Shown here: piece by piece, positions 207 to 23,948 of the stretch
Position numbering within the stretch: the stretch's first letter is position 1
Layout: each line of letters starts with the position of its first letter
DNA from: a virus
Reading direction: 5' to 3' (one strand)
DNA: 25,875 nucleotides
Virus record (IMG/VR): IMGVR_UViG_3300050821_000459
Location: 1 to 25,875 of that record
The notes under the pieces: model-generated
Database searches by the model: none
Told to the model about the DNA's origin: nothing
Seen by the model: the letters and a program-made list of their open reading frames with translations, nothing else
Made by a program: the position numbers and the translations under genes

Positions 207-2112
207 CTAGAATTTGAATGGATTTTTCACGGACATATCAACACCAGTTAACCCCGGTAGGAAGTTTCCTATATTGATTTTAGTGGCGAGAGTTATAAAG
301 GCGTCAGATGTGGCGTCAACTTGCAATATCTTAAACAAGATTCGTTAATTCTTATCCAGTCCTTAGACTGCTATGTATCGCTACATAGAGGAGACTATCT
401 CTTCAAACAATTTTGTTTGCCCACCACTTCCACTCACTTGAGTGTACTCCCTTCCGGGATAGTCGTTACACCTTCCTACTGTTGTAGGCTTGGCTCGGTA
501 TTGTCTCATAGAGAGGTTCACCGAATTCGATGGGTTTATAGACGACCAATGTTTTAAAAATCGTCTTTATTCTTACGGCTTCCGTCAAACTGTTCCAATT
601 CATCGAAATAAACATCATTCCATGAGTCGTCTTCTACATAGTCAATAAGACCAGCTTCGGCTGCGGCTGCGAAGGGTTGAAATCTTACAACTTTAGATTT
701 ATTCGTAGGGCGCATTCTAGCGTAGAAACCTTCGGAAAGAAGCTCTTTAATCATCATCTGGCCCGCAGCCTTACCAGCTTGTCCGGGTTCTTGAGGGAGA
801 ATGATCTGTGTACCATCTGGATCAGACTTTGCAGTATCAAGAATTCTCTGCATTACTTCACCAAACCGAGCTTTAAATCTGACTACATCAACAACAATAT
901 AACGGCCAGCTTTAGTCTTCGCTAATAAAACGCCGGCTGTTGCGTCAGGATTTGGCGTAGCCTCACTGGGGAGCGAGCCTGCAATGTCCCACGCACGACA
1001 ATAAGAAATAATGTTTTGTTCATGTAATCTAATAGGACTACAAAAATCTTTCTTAAAGAATCCGCTAGAAGTTTCTTTTGCATACCACGACCCGAGGTAA
1101 AGCCGCTCCATTTCTACACGGGGCATATTCATGAGTTTATGGGCGTAGGATGGGTCACGGCGGAGCAAAACTGGATTATCGTGACAATTTGCCGGAAGGA
1201 AAACAAATGACATTGGGCCACAGTTTTCACCATAAGTCTGAAGTAATTCTTCTTTAGATTCGGACCATACCATTTTATTATCAATACGAATAAACCACAT
1301 CCGTACACCATCGCGGTCTTTTCGAGGAATACCCCTTTCGTCTAGATAGCCAGCATCTTCTAGCCATTTACGAAGATATGAGTCATAGTCAGGGTTCGCA
1401 GTCATCATCATCACAGGCTTCATCGGAGCTGCTGTACGCATACGGGAGATGAAATAAAGTACCTGAGATTCCTCAAATTGCTGAGCCTCATCTACGAGGA
1501 ATGCACTCACCTGCCAGCCTTGGAAGTTATGCTTATCTTTTTCTTGCTCACAACCTTTACAGACAATAGTAGCTTTATTTGGGAAGATAAATTTACTATC
1601 CTTAACCCGCCACTGTGCTCCAAAAGGTTGATAAATCTCTTGTCCTGTCTCAGCAGGACCACCGGGGCCGGTTACTTGAACCATTGTCCTTCGTAGAATA
1701 ACTCCACGAAACTTTCCCATGGACGGGTCTTGGACCCATTGAAGAAAAGCCATAACACCTAAATAACTCTTACCACTACCCAAATACTTATGAAGTTCGT
1801 TAAACTTCCTCTTATCACTAAGAGAATCGGACTATATCTTCAACCAGTAGGTTGCCCCCCGTTTCGATTGCACTTGCAACCTACTCTACTAAGTTCCGTA
1901 TAAATACGTCTTTTCGATAGTCTCTGAACGTTACTTATTTCTAAGTCTTCGCTGCTGATTGTCTCTGAGAGAGTTCCAGCAATTAGAGGGGTTTAACGCG
2001 ACCCATAGTGTTAAGCCGCGCCTCCGAAGAGGACTATATCATTTTCTGAAACCGCCTTTAGGAAGGCGGCTTGCTTGGCTGAGGCTGGAGCAATAATATT
2101 GTCGTCAGACAT
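207..2112 (-). CDS. terL: Terminase large subunit, three exons split by two group I introns
   Basis: The DNA-packaging motor: an ATPase that pumps DNA into the prohead plus a nuclease that cuts concatemers. Reading leftward, exon 1 is 2112-2014 (33 codons), exon 2 is 1780-560 (407 codons), exon 3 is 323-207 (38 codons plus TAG), giving 478 residues, a normal length. Spliced motifs: Walker A GGAAGSGKS at residues 30-38, Walker B FLVDEA with D130-E131, a TANP coupling motif near 160-163, nuclease motif AWDIAGS with D298, and the C-terminal metal-binding motif DDQVDATSDAF from 439. Without splicing, translation stops after 33 codons (TAA is the first intron codon), and a product that spliced only the first intron would stop two residues into the nuclease motif. 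Start: ATG 2112 (AAGG 12 nt upstream); ATG 2121, in frame three codons earlier, is an alternative. The gene overlaps the preceding endonuclease gene by 8 nt. An unspliced reading starting from TTG at 1783 is an artefact of intron sequence. Confidence 0.93.
324..559 (-). ncRNA. Group I intron in the terL nuclease motif, ORF-less (236 nt)
   Basis: A self-splicing ribozyme between exon base 560 (T) and exon base 323 (C); the last intron base is G (324). P1: exon AGACGAU (566-560) pairs with intron 546-540 through seven pairs ending in the expected U-G wobble at the 5' splice site. P4/P5: UCGGU and ACCGA enclose the phage-type GAACCUCUC..GAGACAAU segment. P6: CCUAC/GUAGG. P7: GACUAUC (464-458) with GAUAGUC (399-393), seven perfect pairs. 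P9-like hairpin CUAUGUA-GCGA-UACAUAG near 388-371. These match the IA2-type core familiar from the T4 td intron. The splice joins GAT to CAA and restores D-D-Q-V-D-A. There is no room for an endonuclease gene inside. Confidence 0.93.
1781..2013 (-). ncRNA. Group I intron in the terL P-loop, ORF-less (233 nt)
   Basis: The second ribozyme in terL, between exon base 2014 (T) and exon base 1780 (G), ending in G (1781). P1: exon CGCGGCU (2020-2014) pairs with 2003-1997 (GGUCGCG), seven pairs ending in U-G. P4/P5: GCUG/CAGC around AACUCUCUCAGAGACAAU, nearly the same segment as in the other intron. P6: ACUUA-GAAA-UAAGU. P7: GACUAU (1922-1917) with AUAGUC (1835-1830). P8: AGUAGGUUGC with GCAACCUACU, ten perfect pairs. 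P9: CUCUUA-GUGA-UAAGAG, followed by GAAGUU/AACUUC. Splicing joins GGCGCGGCT to GGTAGTGGT, giving G-G-A-A-G-S-G-K-S. It shares the core but not the peripheral sequence with the downstream intron, so the two are relatives rather than a recent duplication. Confidence 0.93.
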
Positions 2113-2860
2113 ATCTGCCATTTACCTTATCTAATGCTCGGGCATTAACTGCACCTGCTGACTTATTTTCATACTCAGTCACAAACATGCAAAGCTCTCG
2201 TGAGTACACTTTGTTATCTGGAACTTTTAAATCTTTATCAAGATTGTATTTAAGTCCTGTTTCACTTGCATTCAACCACATTTCAAAGTTTTCAAGTTTT
2301 GAAATGTCAGTAAGAAAGTTTGCAAAGCAGTGCCAACGGGCATCAACAAAGCAACGACCAAAATATCCCATATAATCTTTTGGATTATAGCAACGCTTCA
2401 TCATATTGGACCAAAGTTGTTTGGCTTGTTTCCAATATGGAAGAAGTTCGTACTCCCCAAGATATCCGATACCAAGAAACGTCTTACTATATGGGTCAGA
2501 AATCTTACCTTTTCGTACGTTGTGAATTTCTACTGTAGTTGTGTACCCAGTTTCATTAAATTGGACTACACATTTACTAGCTTTTTTACTAATAATTTTA
2601 CCACTAAATCCTGCATTATTAGTGAAGTCTTCATCCCAAGGTTGCCAAGTGTGTGTTGTACATCTCGGCAGACTAGCGTCTCTAACTTTACCCGCAATTA
2701 TATTTCCGGGTTCAACGACTGTTTCATACCCAGTATTTACAAACCTTACCTTAAGTTTTCTTCCATCATCAGTCCTCCCTAGCACTTCAAAAGTGCCGTA
2801 GCCATTTGACTCATAAAACTGATCATATACTTTACGGTAATTTCCAACTCTGTTAGCCAT
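2105..2860 (-). CDS. Free-standing HNH-like homing endonuclease with tandem DNA-binding repeats
   Basis: 251 residues. Two similar modules can be seen at about 20-60 and 83-125, each with a 'V/VQF-N-TGY-TTVE/V-G-K' pattern (VRFVNTGYETVVE and VQFNETGYTTTVE), as expected of repeated DNA-binding units of phage homing enzymes. The C-terminal part has the arrangement W..M.KRCYNPKD..Y, then W.CFANFLTDI, then LDKDLKVPDNKVYS, then CMFVTEYEN, which I associate with HNH/His-Me-finger phage homing endonucleases. Start ATG 2860 with GGGAG 8 nt upstream. The last 8 nt overlap the terL start. It sits outside both introns but next to the terL exon in which the P-loop intron is inserted, which suggests a link to intron spread. 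Catalytic residues were not confirmed, so family certainty is moderate. Confidence 0.75.
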   Translation of the reverse strand: MANRVGNYRKVYDQFYESNGYGTFEVLGRTDDGRKLKVRFVNTGYETVVEPGNIIAGKVRDASLPRCTTHTWQPWDEDFTNNAGFSGKIISKKASKCVVQFNETGYTTTVEIHNVRKGKISDPYSKTFLGIGYLGEYELLPYWKQAKQLWSNMMKRCYNPKDYMGYFGRCFVDARWHCFANFLTDISKLENFEMWLNASETGLKYNLDKDLKVPDNKVYSRELCMFVTEYENKSAGAVNARALDKVNGRYV

Positions 2861-2894
2861 GTGAATTCTCCCATGCTAGTTAATTAAATTTAAA

Positions 2895-4001: not shown

Positions 4002-4138
4002 GTTCTCATACAGTGAGGAGAGCACCATACAAGAACATGAAAGACCCTTAAGGAAGGAGAGAGGAGGAGCTCAAGAGTCTTTAAGAGTGAGCAGAAGAGG
4101 GAGAAAGCTCACAGGGAATACCTCAGAGTGTTTTAAGA
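3985..4138 (+). repeat. Three copies of an AGAGT-TTAAGA motif in a purine-rich stretch
   Basis: AGAGTGCTTAAGA (3985-3997), AGAGTCTTTAAGA (4074-4086) and AGAGTGTTTTAAGA (4125-4138). The plus strand from about 3980 to 4120 is strikingly rich in A and G. The only reading frame here (from ATG 3961) has no ribosome binding site and a low-complexity Arg/Lys/Glu/Ser product, so I treat the region 3915-4230 as non-coding. Confidence 0.4.
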
Positions 4139-4235
4139 TTAGTTCTTATTGTCTGAGGGTGAAACAAATTGCAAGCTGTACTGGAGACGCACAAAGAATA
4201 TCAGAGTATTCAAAGTATCGCCCTAAGTAGTGTCC

Positions 4236-4324
4236 AGCCTTTCGATAATCAACGTCTCATCCTGTAGAGTGAATCCATACACTATCTCTCAGGATTCCTG
4301 TGTACTGCGATTGATTATCTGGCT
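4236..4324. other. Long interrupted dyad, likely structured RNA
   Basis: Outer stem AGCC (4236-4239) plus GATAATCAA (4244-4252) pairs with TTGATTATC (4311-4319) plus GGCT (4321-4324); an inner stem ATCCTG (4259-4264) pairs with CAGGAT (4290-4295). It lies 25 bases beyond the stop of the 4349-4628 gene on the minus strand. There is no T run, so it is not a plain terminator. It may cap that transcript or be a separate RNA element. Confidence 0.45.
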
Positions 4325-4348
4325 TGCAAAATCTTTAAATTAATACCA

Positions 4349-4628
4349 CTAGCAAGTTACAACGTACGGCGGCATTAAATCCCAAGCCTTTTCAGATTCC
4401 GGTCGGCGACCAATAAGATCAATAAGATCAGTTAACTTTTGGTGATCTGGAAATTGAACTGTAGGCTTAATTTCAATATTCATGTCGGATGTACGATCAG
4501 GCGTCTTCTTATCAAATACAAGCTTCAAATGATCTTTAATCATCAACCATTGTTTTTTCAGAGATAGTGTCTGTATCTTGAAGTTCTACGAAGCCTTGTA
4601 ACCAGTATGTAAACGTTTCAGAATTCAT
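4349..4628 (-). CDS. Small conserved-type phage protein with a broken reading frame at an A6 run
   Basis: From ATG 4628 (AGAG 10 nt upstream) the frame reads MNSETFTYWLQGFVELQDTD and 5 residues later meets a run of six A (4552-4557 on the complement). After it, the frame ends shortly at TAA. Dropping one A joins it to the second frame: SEK-QWLMIKDHLKLVFDKKTP and onward to VVTC at 4349, about 92 residues. 'F.YWLQGF.EL' followed by 'IKDHL..VF.K.TP' is a common layout of a small phage protein of unknown function, so the two parts belong together. The cause may be a real +1 frameshift, a mutation, or a base-call error in the homopolymer. It has its own consensus promoter. Confidence 0.7.
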
Positions 4629-4653
4629 TTCGGTTTACTCTTTAAGTTCTTTG

Positions 4654-4682
4654 ATTTTACACGTCTTATTCTATTTTGTCAA
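4654..4682 (-). promoter_or_regulatory. Strong sigma70-like promoter for the 4349-4628 gene
   Basis: TTGACA (4682-4677), 17-base spacer, TAAAAT (4659-4654) on the minus strand, about 25 bases before the ATG at 4628. Confidence 0.75.
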
Positions 4683-4686
4683 GAGG

Positions 4687-4863
4687 TTATTCATAAATTG
4701 GCATAATAATTCTAAAAGAAGTTGAATTTAACTCCGTAATGGATTCAAAAGCACTCTCCCACTTAAAGTCAGGAGAGCTATCTTCTAGGTGTTCTACGAC
4801 AATATTACAAGTACAACTTCTATCAAAGCGTCCACATTCGGGACAATAAGTATCTTCGCCCAT
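4687..4863 (-). CDS. 58-residue protein with a zinc-ribbon-like CxxC/CxC start
   Basis: Starts MGEDTYCPECGRFDRSCTC: CPEC and CTC pairs within the first 19 residues could bind one zinc ion. The rest is acidic and ends MPIYE. ATG 4863 has AAGGAG 7 nt upstream, an excellent site, and a promoter at 4897-4926. Too short and too plain for a function; small zinc proteins of this kind are common phage host-takeover factors, but that is inference. Confidence 0.7.
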   Translation of the reverse strand: MGEDTYCPECGRFDRSCTCNIVVEHLEDSSPDFKWESAFESITELNSTSFRIIMPIYE

Positions 4864-4896
4864 TTGTGGACTCCTTGGTTGATTTCTTATTTAAGA

Positions 4897-4926
4897 ACTT
4901 TAAATCATTTCTAAGTCATTTGTCAA
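4897..4926 (-). promoter_or_regulatory. Sigma70-like promoter for the 4687-4863 gene
   Basis: TTGACA (4926-4921), 18-base spacer, TAAAGT (4902-4897) on the minus strand. It lies immediately after the end of the 4946-5266 gene, so this gene can be expressed separately from the polymerase-like unit upstream. Confidence 0.6.
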
Positions 4927-4945: not shown

Positions 4946-5266
4946 TTAAATGTCATAATCATATTCTTTTTCTAATCGTTTTAGTTCCAATCTGTATTCG
5001 ATATCATCAATACTGTTTTTAATCTCTAGCCCCGCGTGAGAATCTCCATAATTCTTTAGTGCAAAGTCATCAAGAGAGCATTGTCGGCAAACTCGATTAT
5101 TTACATACCGAAAAGTGACATGACCTCTTGCGCAAGGCTTACCTGTCCAATAAAACTTCAGGTCTGCTGAAACTGCTTGATCCCTTGTAATATGACTATT
5201 TCCAAACAGGCCAGTTGCTTCTTTGATAAACTGCAATAATGTTTCTGTTTTACCTTTACGTTTCAT
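4946..5266 (-). CDS. Small protein with a Cys-His zinc-binding cluster (GKPCxRGH...CRQC)
   Basis: 106 residues. The middle holds FYWTGKPCARGHVTFRYVNN then RVCRQC, a four-ligand C-x3-H-xn-C-x2-C cluster of the kind found in phage endonuclease-associated zinc modules (endonuclease VII-like and HNH families carry similar 'GKPC.RGH' segments). The nuclease residues themselves are not evident, so this may be only a DNA-binding remnant or a separate small protein. Start ATG 5266 overlaps the stop of the polymerase-like gene by 4 nt (ATGA), so translation is probably coupled. Confidence 0.7.
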   Translation of the reverse strand: MKRKGKTETLLQFIKEATGLFGNSHITRDQAVSADLKFYWTGKPCARGHVTFRYVNNRVCRQCSLDDFALKNYGDSHAGLEIKNSIDDIEYRLELKRLEKEYDYDI

Positions 5267-6624
5267 TTCTTATCCACCTTACAAAATGTTTTATCACCCA
5301 ACACAGCTTCCCATGCTGAGTACATAGCCTCTCTTAAGTCATCTTCAGCAGAAGCTTTAACTAAGCAGCTATCGTGATAAGCTAACACTGTATGCCCTTT
5401 AGACCCCATTGCACCAACAATACGCATCATGATTTTACTATCGATGTTTTGCAGAGTAATACCAGCATCCGAAAAGAAATGCTCTGAGATAAAATCATTG
5501 TGACTTTGAACAGCCTCAAGTACAGATGAATAGTCAATGTCCCCTACCATTGCATAGAACTCTTGATCTTCAATGCCGTTCTGAGCACGGTCAATCTTAA
5601 CTTTATTACCAAGTGTCCAAGCTGCGCTATTCTTGTCGTTAGAGTTCATACCAATAAGAATAGCTAATTTAGCTAACTGTCGTACAGGGTTATGTGTCTT
5701 ACCTGTAACAGACTCCCATTGTTCCTTCATGCGACCATCAACTTTGATAAACGAAAGGTCTGCACCATAGGGAGAGAAATCTTCTCCCATTACATCATAA
5801 ATACTGAAGCCATCTGTATTGTACATCATCTGATAGCAGATGCTTGGGTGGATAGCTGAGTAATCCAACTCCACAACTGGCTCACCATCAATCATCAAGG
5901 ATGACGCTCGGATGTGTTGTGGGAGAAGCTGAACTCCACCACCTAGCGTATAGAGACGGCCACCACTCTCCAGATCACCACTAAAGATACGACGGTATGC
6001 AACATCAGCAATAGGACGGCCATCAAAAGTAATTGATGCACCAGCCAACATATCATTCATACTCTTAACCTCACTTTTGATATCTTTAAATCCTTTATGA
6101 CCTCGTGTTGGCATCATATCTTTTGTTTCACGGTCACGAATGATAGCTAGGTCATTATCTTCAAGCTCTTTCCACAAATTGTAGGAAGTATTAACATTCT
6201 CCCACATCTCTTCTGTTCTCTTTTTGAATATCATACATGAAGGAACAGATTCATCAGGAACTAAGTTCCCTTTATGCATCTTCCAAGATTTTACATACCC
6301 TTTGTAAAGGTCAATATACCCTTTAGCCTCAAGGAAGTCAACAAGAGATTTAACTTTCCTGTACCCAATACCTTGCTTTGACTTAGTGTATGCGTGTATG
6401 TCAAGACTGAAGACAATACCTTTAGCATTCTTCTTGACAGCACGGGCAGAGTTAGACACCCACCATCTTACTGCATCTTCCCACTTGTAGTTGGTATGCT
6501 CCATCACTCGATCTACTATCTTCTTGTAGTATTTAGATTCATGGTAATAGATATAGCTTCTTACACACCTGAGATTAACAGAGTAAGCTTGATGTTCTGT
6601 CATGTTACTTAATTCATAGATCAC
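5263..6624 (-). CDS. Reduced family-A-like polymerase palm protein with an N-terminal helical/winged-helix-like region
   Basis: 453 residues. Residues 1-200 look like DNA-binding helices (for example GYRKVKSLVDFLEAKGYIDL near 87-106, a winged-helix-like pattern). From 222 a polymerase-like order appears: GRLYT (222-226), motif A VELDYSAIHP with D254, motif B-like R315-x3-K319 followed by a small-residue/Asn stretch, and motif C AYHDSCLV with H417-D418. Family A polymerases have DYSxxE in motif A and HDE in motif C; here the HDE glutamate is Ser and no separate exonuclease or full fingers/thumb is evident. I recall similar unannotated proteins in phages and mobile elements. Likely role: DNA synthesis or replication start, unproven. 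Start is GTG 6624 with AGGA 6 nt upstream; an internal ATG lacks a site. Confidence 0.65.
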   Translation of the reverse strand: MIYELSNMTEHQAYSVNLRCVRSYIYYHESKYYKKIVDRVMEHTNYKWEDAVRWWVSNSARAVKKNAKGIVFSLDIHAYTKSKQGIGYRKVKSLVDFLEAKGYIDLYKGYVKSWKMHKGNLVPDESVPSCMIFKKRTEEMWENVNTSYNLWKELEDNDLAIIRDRETKDMMPTRGHKGFKDIKSEVKSMNDMLAGASITFDGRPIADVAYRRIFSGDLESGGRLYTLGGGVQLLPQHIRASSLMIDGEPVVELDYSAIHPSICYQMMYNTDGFSIYDVMGEDFSPYGADLSFIKVDGRMKEQWESVTGKTHNPVRQLAKLAILIGMNSNDKNSAAWTLGNKVKIDRAQNGIEDQEFYAMVGDIDYSSVLEAVQSHNDFISEHFFSDAGITLQNIDSKIMMRIVGAMGSKGHTVLAYHDSCLVKASAEDDLREAMYSAWEAVLGDKTFCKVDKK

Positions 6625-11714: not shown

Positions 11715-12449
11715 ATGGCTGCTAAAATAGATTTGACGGGGAAGAAATACAATAGACTTCTAGTAGAAAGCTTTGCAGGCACACGTAGAACGGAGGGTGC
11801 TGGACAATCTATACGAACTTGGAACTGCTTGTGTGATTGTGGTAATCGGATTGTTGTAGATGGGCACGCACTGAAGTGTGATAACACAATGAGCTGTGGA
11901 TGTTATAAGCTAGAAGTTACAACAACACATGGGATGTGGAAGGATAGGTTTTATGGTATATGGGCTGACATGAAGGTAAGATGTGACTGCCCGACTAACC
12001 AGTCTTATCACAGATATGGAGGGCGTGGTATTGGATATCAAGATTCTTGGGTGGATTTCGAAGAGTTTAAATCTGACATGTATCCAAGCTATGAGGATCA
12101 TTTAACACTAGAACGAGTTGATGTACATGGAAACTACTGTATAGAAAACTGTACATGGATCACCAAGGCAGAGCAAGCAAGAAATAAGGGAATGGATGAC
12201 AGAAACAAAACAGGTGTTACTGGTGTTAGGACTTGGGTAGACAAGAAGACATTAGTTAAATATTATGTTGCCGATGCACAAGCTCCTGATGGATCAAGGA
12301 TGTCAAAACATTTTTCTACTGTAAAGTATGGTGAGGAGGGGGCTTTTAATATGGCAGTTGAGCGTAGGAAAGAGTATATTACCCTACTTAATGAACAAGG
12401 TGCCGGATACGGCGAAAATCACGGTACTAATAAAGAGGCTTTCCTATGA
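11715..12449 (+). CDS. HNH homing endonuclease with zinc-like N-terminus and C-terminal AP2 domain
   Basis: 244 residues. N-terminus DLTGKKYNRLLVESF and C-x-CDCG (38-42) with SCGC (60-63) form the usual zinc-type DNA-binding start; then IWADMKVRC, YGGRGIGY, W.DFEEFKSDM and the catalytic segment LERVDVHGNYCIENCTW (132-148), the HNH signature of this family (E-R-x-D-x-x-G-N-Y-x-x-E-N-C-x-W). Residues 165-220 (TGVTGVRTW, YYVADAQAP, HFSTVKYGEEGAF) are an AP2 domain. Free-standing, no intron around it; it sits as an insertion between phoH and the ClpP-like gene, with short spacing to the first and ATGA overlap with the second. Confidence 0.9.
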   Translation: MAAKIDLTGKKYNRLLVESFAGTRRTEGAGQSIRTWNCLCDCGNRIVVDGHALKCDNTMSCGCYKLEVTTTHGMWKDRFYGIWADMKVRCDCPTNQSYHRYGGRGIGYQDSWVDFEEFKSDMYPSYEDHLTLERVDVHGNYCIENCTWITKAEQARNKGMDDRNKTGVTGVRTWVDKKTLVKYYVADAQAPDGSRMSKHFSTVKYGEEGAFNMAVERRKEYITLLNEQGAGYGENHGTNKEAFL

Positions 12450-22862: not shown

Positions 22863-23948
22863 ATGATTGAAAAGTGGAAAGTTGTAGAAGGTTATGAAGG
22901 GAAATACGAGGTCAGTAACTTCGGAGAAGTGAGAAACGTTTGGGACAACGTACCAGTAGCTAAAGTGATTGCTGGTATTCCTCAGTATTGGTATGTGAAC
23001 CTTACACATCCAGATAAGACAAGAGCATTAGTGCGATTGCACCGAGAAGTGGCTAAAGCTTTTATTCCAAACCCTGAAAACTTACCAATGGTTGATCACA
23101 TCGACAGAGATAGACTTAATAACAAACTGTTTAACCTCCGATGGGTAACACGATCTGGTAATCAGCGGAATACAGAAAGGAATAACTATTTTGGGGAGGG
23201 CTTATTACTAGACTATGTGAAGCAGTATGAAAATCCAGAGGCTGCCTATGCTCACATTGACTCAAGTATTAAGTCTGGTCTTACACAGCAAGAGGCTTTA
23301 GACAAATATAGTAAGTACCTTGAGTATGGAAGGAAACAGTTTAAAGTTGAGTGGAATGGTGAAACCGTATACCTAGCAGACTTGTGTGCTAAATATTTGG
23401 TAGAATACGATGCTGTTAGGGACAGGCTCACTCAAGGGTGGGGCATCTGGAATGCTATTTCTAATATCAACCCAAATAACCCTTTCAGTTTTGAAGTTAA
23501 AGGTAAATACGGTGTTGGACACTGGTTCCCTTCAAAGGCCTATTTCAGCAACCTCCACAGTGAATCTCTACTTAAGTACCTTGATGAGGGTCTAGACTAT
23601 GAAGATGTACTGACTAAAGACGGTAAAGATTATCTTAGGCAAACAGTCAGGGGTGTTTATGGTACTGTAAAAGAGTTGTGTGAGCATTTTGAAGTAAGTC
23701 TAAGAGCTGTAGAGACTAATAGGCTTAAGAAAGGTATGACACTAGAAGAAGCTATATTTTCTCCTAGACAGCGAGTTAAAAGGCTTTCAATCAATGGTGT
23801 GTATAACAGCCCAAAATATTGGTACGAGAGTTTTGGTATCAATGCAAAGACAGCCAATAAGTATAAGAGTGATAAGAAGTTAACTTTTAAGGAAACCTTC
23901 GAGCATTATGGTGTGGATACTTCTGAAATGGTTATCTCGATAGTATAA
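22863..23948 (+). CDS. NUMOD4-HNH homing endonuclease with C-terminal DNA-binding repeats
   Basis: 361 residues. NUMOD4 start EKWKVVEGYEGKYEVSNFGE (3-22); HNH domain from about 59 with RLHREVAKAFIPNP, MVDHIDRDRLNNKLFNLRWV (77-96) and TRSGNQRN, keeping the His and Asn-containing core. After 130, four related modules can be seen (starting near FKVEWNGE, FSFEVKGKYG, LRQTVRGVYG and RLSINGVYNS), each ending in a helix with 'G....A/E' and each likely a small helix-turn-helix recognition unit. Free-standing. Not within a visible intron. It has its own TATAAT-like element and intrinsic terminator, so it forms a self-contained cassette at the operon end. Confidence 0.92.
   Translation: MIEKWKVVEGYEGKYEVSNFGEVRNVWDNVPVAKVIAGIPQYWYVNLTHPDKTRALVRLHREVAKAFIPNPENLPMVDHIDRDRLNNKLFNLRWVTRSGNQRNTERNNYFGEGLLLDYVKQYENPEAAYAHIDSSIKSGLTQQEALDKYSKYLEYGRKQFKVEWNGETVYLADLCAKYLVEYDAVRDRLTQGWGIWNAISNINPNNPFSFEVKGKYGVGHWFPSKAYFSNLHSESLLKYLDEGLDYEDVLTKDGKDYLRQTVRGVYGTVKELCEHFEVSLRAVETNRLKKGMTLEEAIFSPRQRVKRLSINGVYNSPKYWYESFGINAKTANKYKSDKKLTFKETFEHYGVDTSEMVISIV

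What the first reader, a model, noticed from the sequence alone, without database searches (positions are those of the whole stretch)
207..2112. Terminase gene split by two ORF-less group I introns in its two catalytic motifs
Both introns interrupt codons for essential motifs: one the P-loop (GGAA|GSGKS), one the DDQVDA nuclease motif (DD|QVDA). For each, P1, P6, P7 and P9-like stems, the U-G pair at the 5' splice site and the terminal G can be read. Known: mobile introns favour conserved sites in essential genes. Two in one small terminase, each under 240 nt, is unusual, and splicing becomes a checkpoint for late packaging.
Basis: partly seen in the sequence, partly recalled or inferred. Interest (0 to 1): 0.88.

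Follow-up and report, generated by a model that had tools for sequence, protein, structure and literature searches.

The report
Phage packaging-motor gene with two self-splicing introns
A phage gene for the DNA-packaging motor is interrupted twice, in its ATP-binding and its DNA-cutting motifs, by small RNA elements predicted to cut themselves out of the message; each feature is known from other phages, but the neighbouring endonuclease gene and its relatives make it possible to test how such introns spread.

Summary
On the minus strand a 478-aa terminase large subunit (TerL) is encoded by three exons (2112-2014, 1780-560, 323-207), separated by two ORF-less group I introns of 233 and 236 nt. 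Both pass Rfam's group I threshold (88.3 and 75.7 bits). P1, P10 and core helices covary across relatives, including exon-intron pairings. Intron-free relatives confirm the site-2 join. Site 1 is GGAA|GSGKS (Walker A); site 2 is DD|QVDA (nuclease motif).

The architecture is not unprecedented. Vibrio phage ICP1 has the same layout at the P-loop, spliced in vivo. Bastillevirinae TerLs carry two or three introns. TerL inteins hit the same ATPase motifs.

What adds interest is the HNH-family gene overlapping the terL start (2860-2105). Its closest relatives lie inside the intron at the site-2 position in three divergent TerLs, or free-standing beside terL. Among TerL-sampled relatives, all five with the free-standing gene carry intron 2, versus 3 of 26 without it. 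I infer, but have not shown, that this endonuclease mobilises intron 2 in trans. A packaging "checkpoint" is unsupported. New member of a known kind.

The parts
2014..2112 (-). terL exon 1, 33 codons, ends in Walker A (FGGAA)
1781..2013 (-). intron 1, group I, 233 nt, no ORF; P1 pairs 2022-2014 with 2003-1995, P10 2010-2005 with 1779-1774, P3 1991-1986 with 1860-1855, P7 1922-1918 with 1834-1830
   Evidence: Rfam 88.3 bits; covariation
560..1780 (-). terL exon 2, codons 34-440 (GSGKS ... KDD)
324..559 (-). intron 2, group I, 236 nt, no ORF; P1 pairs 566-560 with 546-540, P3 534-529 with 425-420, P7 464-460 with 397-393
   Evidence: Rfam 75.7 bits; covariation; absent from intron-free relatives
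207..323 (-). terL exon 3, codons 441-478 and stop (QVDATSDAF...)
2105..2860 (-). HNH-family endonuclease gene (phrog_2081), overlapping the terL start by 8 nt; candidate trans-acting homing endonuclease of intron 2

Best explanation
A phage terL gene is interrupted by two small, ORF-less group I introns that fold as ribozymes and excise by the standard two-step guanosine-initiated reaction, restoring codons 33|34 (Walker A) and 440|441 (nuclease motif) so that a 478-aa TerL is made. In both, an in-frame stop lies within the first six intron bases, so unspliced RNA gives only truncated products. They are best read as mobile elements held at sites where imprecise loss would be lethal, not as evident regulators. 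Lacking their own endonuclease, they most likely spread by homologous repair after cleavage in trans; the HNH gene overlapping the terL start is the best candidate for intron 2, 1.5 kb away. Shown by computation: intron identity, joins, covariation, presence/absence polymorphism, HNH association. Inferred: splicing in cells, cleavage by the HNH protein, homing. The confidence given is for the intron reading; the trans-homing step alone I put at about 0.4.
For: Rfam hits; exact joins and continuous TerL; covariation including exon-intron P1 and P10; intron 2 precisely absent from L002, L004, L005 and others. Exon-guide co-adaptation: the second Asp codon at site 2 ends in T in 12/12 carriers and 9/27 empty alleles. 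Purifying selection on the exons: 175 of 223 exon-2 differences from L003 are at third codon positions. ICP1 terL with a P-loop intron is spliced in vivo (PMC10448857; layout). HNH: relatives of >=48% identity found only beside terL or in a terL intron; inside the site-2 intron in KIL1, L060 and L061; TerL-sampled association with intron 2 of 5/5 versus 3/26, Fisher 3.3e-4; none with intron 1, p = 1.
Against: No RNA data for this phage. The HNH association rests on few events: in the TerL-sampled set only 4-5 independent pairs, none discordant but too few for significance; the wider set reaches 6:0, p 0.03, but counts in-intron cases and loci chosen for having the HNH. L056 and L057 carry the HNH without intron 2. 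The DNA block shared with L057 spans HNH, exon 1 and intron 1 (window 1753-2894), which would also fit an HNH tied to the P-loop. The HNH nuclease fold was not recovered by AlphaFold plus Foldseek.
Confidence: 0.88

Rival explanations
1. The introns are real, but the upstream HNH gene has nothing to do with them: the slot before terL is a landing place for unrelated free-standing endonucleases that cut elsewhere, and the ORF-less introns are relics left after their own endonuclease was lost, now inherited with the gene.
For: Relatives hold at least four other endonuclease types in the same slot: NUMOD3/HNH, T5orf172, HNH_3/AP2, NUMOD4, in intron carriers and non-carriers alike. L056 has the HNH (88% identical) with neither window intron. 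PMC10448857 proposes endonuclease turnover for the ICP1 terL.
Against: The same HNH subfamily lies inside the site-2 intron in three divergent TerLs, and TerL-sampled HNH carriers all have intron 2.
Confidence: 0.45
2. The HNH protein acts on the P-loop site and mobilises intron 1, the nearer intron, with co-conversion of its own gene; its link to intron 2 is coincidence.
For: Distance of about 90 bp against 1.5 kb; with L057 the DNA similarity runs through HNH, exon 1 and intron 1 and stops 27 nt into exon 2; ICP1 has an analogous layout.
Against: No statistical association with intron 1 (p = 1); L045 has the HNH and intron 2 but an empty P-loop site; in-intron copies are at site 2.
Confidence: 0.13
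3. Splicing is a regulatory checkpoint that delays TerL production until late infection.
For: Unspliced RNA gives truncated products; phiAGATE terL splices in the second half of infection (PMC11878797).
Against: Close relatives lack one or other intron (L002, L004, L005, L045); SIOphi shows only spliced terL transcripts (PMC11878797). No regulator or switch seen.
Confidence: 0.05
4. Not introns: a decayed or misassembled terL, or gene fragments acting in trans.
For: Three separate frames with stops between them.
Against: Rfam, covariation, exon conservation, precise empty alleles and an identical sequence in a second record.
Confidence: 0.02

Closest known systems
Vibrio phage ICP1 terL intron with adjacent homing endonuclease tcgB (PMC10448857)
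   Same: Endonuclease gene overlapping the terL start by 4 nt, about 32-codon exon 1, about 250-nt ORF-less intron in the P-loop codons (FYGGA|AGGGKS by my reading), then the rest of TerL; splicing shown there by RNA-seq, RT-PCR and Sanger sequencing (layout checked)
   Different: By my reading the insertion point is one codon upstream of the window's; the endonuclease is T5orf172-type; no intron at the nuclease motif reported; its intron is not found by Rfam even at E 0.1
Bastillevirinae TerL group I introns (SIOphi, phiAGATE; PMC11878797)
   Same: TerL split by up to two or three group I introns; splicing shown in vivo, and in vitro for SIOphi
   Different: Introns there average 802 nt over all genes and the TerL ones include VSR-type nucleases; insertion points were not mapped onto this TerL here
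Pseudomonas phage KIL1 (Flaumdravirus) terL, L015
   Same: Intron at the same DD|QVDA site; the HNH inside it is 50% identical to the window's free-standing HNH
   Different: Intron is 770 nt with the HNH inside; its other intron is at the coupling motif (AANV|YDNP); P-loop uninterrupted
Collaborative or trans homing (reviewed in PMC2988022; also PMC10448857)
   Same: ORF-less intron plus neighbouring free-standing endonuclease
   Different: Cleavage at the intron site not tested here; endonuclease is 1.5 kb from intron 2
TerL inteins of mycobacteriophages (PMC5050341)
   Same: Mobile elements inserted in TerL Walker A, Walker B and C-motif
   Different: Protein splicing, not RNA splicing; all lie in the ATPase domain, none in the nuclease domain

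Membership tests
Group I intron (RF00028) | Covariance-model match above the gathering score | tested here: met
   88.3 and 75.7 bits against 50
Group I intron (RF00028) | P3-P7 catalytic core with covarying helices | tested here: met
   97.0% and 95.4% of cells paired; 0/500 shuffles reach the covariation score. P7 itself hardly varies, so it is conserved rather than covarying.
Group I intron (RF00028) | U-G pair at the 5' splice site in P1, terminal G, P10 | tested here: met
   U-G in 7/7 and 8/8; G at the end of every intron listed; P10 is 6 bp in intron 1 but only 3 bp in intron 2
Group I intron (RF00028) | Guanosine-dependent self-splicing | not testable with these tools
   needs RNA
TerL (Terminase_6) | ATPase and RNase H-like domains, Walker A and nuclease motif intact after joining | tested here: met
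   Terminase_6N 51.2 and Terminase_6C 70.4 bits on the joined protein
HNH homing endonuclease (phrog_2081) | Profile match | tested here: met
   E 8.3e-47
HNH homing endonuclease (phrog_2081) | beta-beta-alpha metal nuclease fold | tested here: inconclusive
   Model pTM 0.42; Foldseek shows only weak Tudor-like matches to the N-terminal part, none at E<=0.001; no Pfam HNH hit
Collaborative (trans) homing pair | Endonuclease co-occurs with the intron | tested here: inconclusive
   5/5 versus 3/26 carry intron 2, Fisher 3.3e-4, but only 4-5 independent pairs
Collaborative (trans) homing pair | Endonuclease cuts the intron-free insertion site | not testable with these tools
   needs a protein assay

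The most novel reading that the evidence does not exclude
The free-standing HNH gene before terL is the trans-acting homing enzyme of the ORF-less intron at the nuclease motif 1.5 kb downstream. The same endonuclease-intron pair exists in nature in both states (endonuclease inside the intron: KIL1, L060, L061; endonuclease outside an ORF-less intron: window, L003, L026, L045), a natural series of the proposed path by which mobile introns gain or lose their endonuclease.
Probability: 0.38. Interest if true: 0.6.

Novelty: new member of a known kind. Interest (0 to 1): 0.4.

Why it matters
TerL emerges as a gene whose catalytic motifs are repeatedly invaded by small group I introns: Walker A at three points within 6 nt in different lineages, Walker B, the coupling motif and the nuclease motif. 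The locus family offers a tractable test of trans homing, because the same endonuclease subfamily is found inside and outside the intron at one site. It also shows that routine annotation truncates TerL in cultured phages.

Tried and rejected
A genome-contig scan with TerL found no relatives; megablast of the first 25 kb of the window against phages gave no match. The HNH tree does not resolve whether the in-intron or free-standing form is older. Structure search of the HNH model gave no nuclease match. Sequence search of the PDB gave nothing meaningful for the HNH protein and only a weak PhoH ATPase match for TerL. Rfam does not detect the ICP1 and barbavirus interruptions, so Rfam-based counts of TerL introns are lower bounds. 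I opened the first 50 kb of SIOphi to map its TerL introns, saw no gene annotated as terminase there and left it. An association of the HNH with intron 1 was tested and not found.

Full report
Observation. On the minus strand of the window, reading from 2112 to 207, a terL gene is interrupted twice. Rfam's group I intron model matches 2073-1808 (88.3 bits) and 615-371 (75.7 bits), well over the gathering score of 50, with no other match at E<=1 in 25.9 kb. The joined protein scores better than the middle ORF alone against Terminase_6N (51.2 against 46.7 bits) and Terminase_6C (70.4 against 57.9 bits, now reaching profile position 153 of 155). Intron 1 is 233 nt and lies in Walker A (GGAA|GSGKS); intron 2 is 236 nt and lies in the nuclease motif (DD|QVDA). 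Neither holds an endonuclease ORF. The first 3,296 nt of the window recur without a mismatch in a second IMG/VR record, and exon differences from relatives are concentrated at third codon positions, most clearly in exon 2, so an assembly error or a decayed gene is unlikely.

Structure. P1 of intron 1 pairs exon GGCGCGGCU with GGUCGCGUU and closes with U-G at the splice site; P10 pairs CACUAU with 3'-exon GUAGUG. P1 of intron 2 pairs exon AGACGAU with GUCGUCU. On seven intron-1 sequences 97.0% of cells pair and 20 of 58 pairs change on both sides; on eight intron-2 sequences 95.4% and 28 of 57. No shuffle of 500 reaches either covariation score, and sliding the partners drops pairing to 35-47%. 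Exon-intron pairs covary too: L057 changes both exon and guide in P1 and P10, and L045 changes both sides of one P1 pair at site 2. At site 2 the second Asp codon ends in T in 12 of 12 carriers but 9 of 27 empty alleles (Fisher 8e-5). In exon 1 of six intron-1 carriers, 16 of 18 invariant amino acids upstream use more than one codon, but none of the last four do. These synonymous sites look locked by pairing to the intron's guide, although shared ancestry of the carriers contributes to the counts. The stretch between P7 and P3' would fit the extra P7 stems of subgroup IA; that is from my own knowledge and was not tested.

Relatives. In IMG/VR the two introns come and go independently among TerLs of 47-93% identity. 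L003 has both; L002, L004 and L005 have only intron 1; L022 and L045 only intron 2; L006 has three (P-loop, NFQG|W just before Walker B, nuclease motif); L007 has one between D and E of Walker B plus intron 2. A neighbouring insertion point, GG|AAGSGKS, two codons upstream of the window's, is occupied by introns of more than one sequence type in L008-L012, L020, L026, several of L030-L037 and L041. Cultured phage KIL1 has introns at the coupling motif and at DD|QVDA. ICP1 and a barbavirus also show an intron-like interruption in the P-loop codons, although Rfam misses both; splicing of the ICP1 one is experimentally proven (PMC10448857). Bastillevirinae TerLs carry up to two or three introns, SIOphi's self-splicing in vitro (PMC11878797). 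That TerL can be split by several introns is therefore not new.

The endonuclease. The ORF at 2860-2105 overlaps the terL start by 8 nt and matches phrog_2081, an HNH family (E 8e-47) that is intron-encoded in Bastillevirinae polymerase genes (PMC11878797, Table 2). A viral scan and a search of 43 records found copies of 48% identity or more only next to terL or inside an intron at the site-2 position. Free-standing before terL: window, L003, L020, L026, L045, L056, L057. Inside the intron: KIL1, L060 and L061. The exon fragment of L061 gave no tblastn match to our TerL, yet it ends in HDD and resumes with QVDA at the corresponding codons. Among loci found through TerL alone, all five with the free-standing HNH carry intron 2, against 3 of 26 without it (Fisher 3.3e-4); the tree allows only four or five independent contrasts, none discordant. 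The wider set gives 6:0 (p 0.03) but includes in-intron and HNH-selected cases; the HNH shows no association with intron 1 (p = 1). The two exceptions, L056 and L057, have distant TerLs without QVDA at the site. HNH genes 88% and 73% identical to the window's beside TerLs of about 30% identity show that the gene moves between phages; with L056 the DNA similarity ends at the HNH stop codon, with L057 it continues through exon 1 and intron 1 and stops 27 nt into exon 2.

Mechanism. I conclude that the introns self-splice to restore TerL (near certain as identity, inferred as activity), and that intron 2 may well spread through cleavage in trans by the neighbouring HNH protein (about 0.4). The main rival is that the slot before terL is simply a landing place for many unrelated endonucleases: it holds NUMOD3/HNH, T5orf172, HNH_3/AP2 and NUMOD4 types in relatives, and PMC10448857 offers endonuclease turnover as an alternative for ICP1. 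A modelled structure of the HNH protein supports tandem Tudor-like N-terminal repeats but not, at this confidence, the nuclease fold. The checkpoint idea is not supported.

Verdict. Its value is the natural series of endonuclease positions around one intron site.

Noticed in passing
L015 (KU130126.1) 4039-4910: GenBank's KIL1 TerL ends at the site-2 intron; the last exon (QVDATSDAF..., at 4809-4910) lies beyond a 770-nt intron holding an HNH gene, so the annotated protein lacks part of its nuclease motif.
   Followed up: yes
L124 (MT497230.1) about 2262-2501: Barbavirus TerL is annotated from after the P-loop (2534); the sequence shows an exon ending VIGG, an intron-like stretch of about 240 nt with P1- and P7-like pairs that Rfam misses, then AAGSGKS. 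115 Rheinheimera phage records match the TerL query and the five listed all start at residue 32, so they may share this.
   Followed up: partly
L006 3792-5706; L007 315-585: TerL with three group I introns (L006); in L007 one intron separates D and E of Walker B (FLVD|EAQQ).
   Followed up: partly
L020 5273-6038: Intron 2 here carries a different ORF (HNH/AP2-like by eye) apparently in the P6 loop, while the same record has the phrog_2081 HNH before terL: one intron site, two endonuclease types.
   Followed up: partly
window 11715-12449: Second free-standing HNH gene (phrog_374) packed between a PhoH-like gene (ends 11706) and a Clp-protease-like gene (starts 12446, 4-nt overlap).
   Followed up: no
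window 22863-23948: Third endonuclease gene, NUMOD4 plus HNH_3.
   Followed up: no
window 5263-6624 (-): 453-aa protein of phrog_4756, unknown function, with polymerase-like stretches by eye (ELDYSAIHPSICY, YHDSC) and no Pfam match.
   Followed up: no
window 2105-2860 (-): The HNH protein has two N-terminal repeats (residues about 16-65 and 77-122), Tudor-like in the predicted model; KIL1 and L061 versions have one.
   Followed up: partly
L017, L018, L019 (Vequintavirus terL): TerL interrupted near residue 132 by an insert annotated with endonuclease VII (L017, 2424-3375) or a short group I intron (L019, Rfam 84.1 bits); L018 has a second interruption near residue 231.
   Followed up: no
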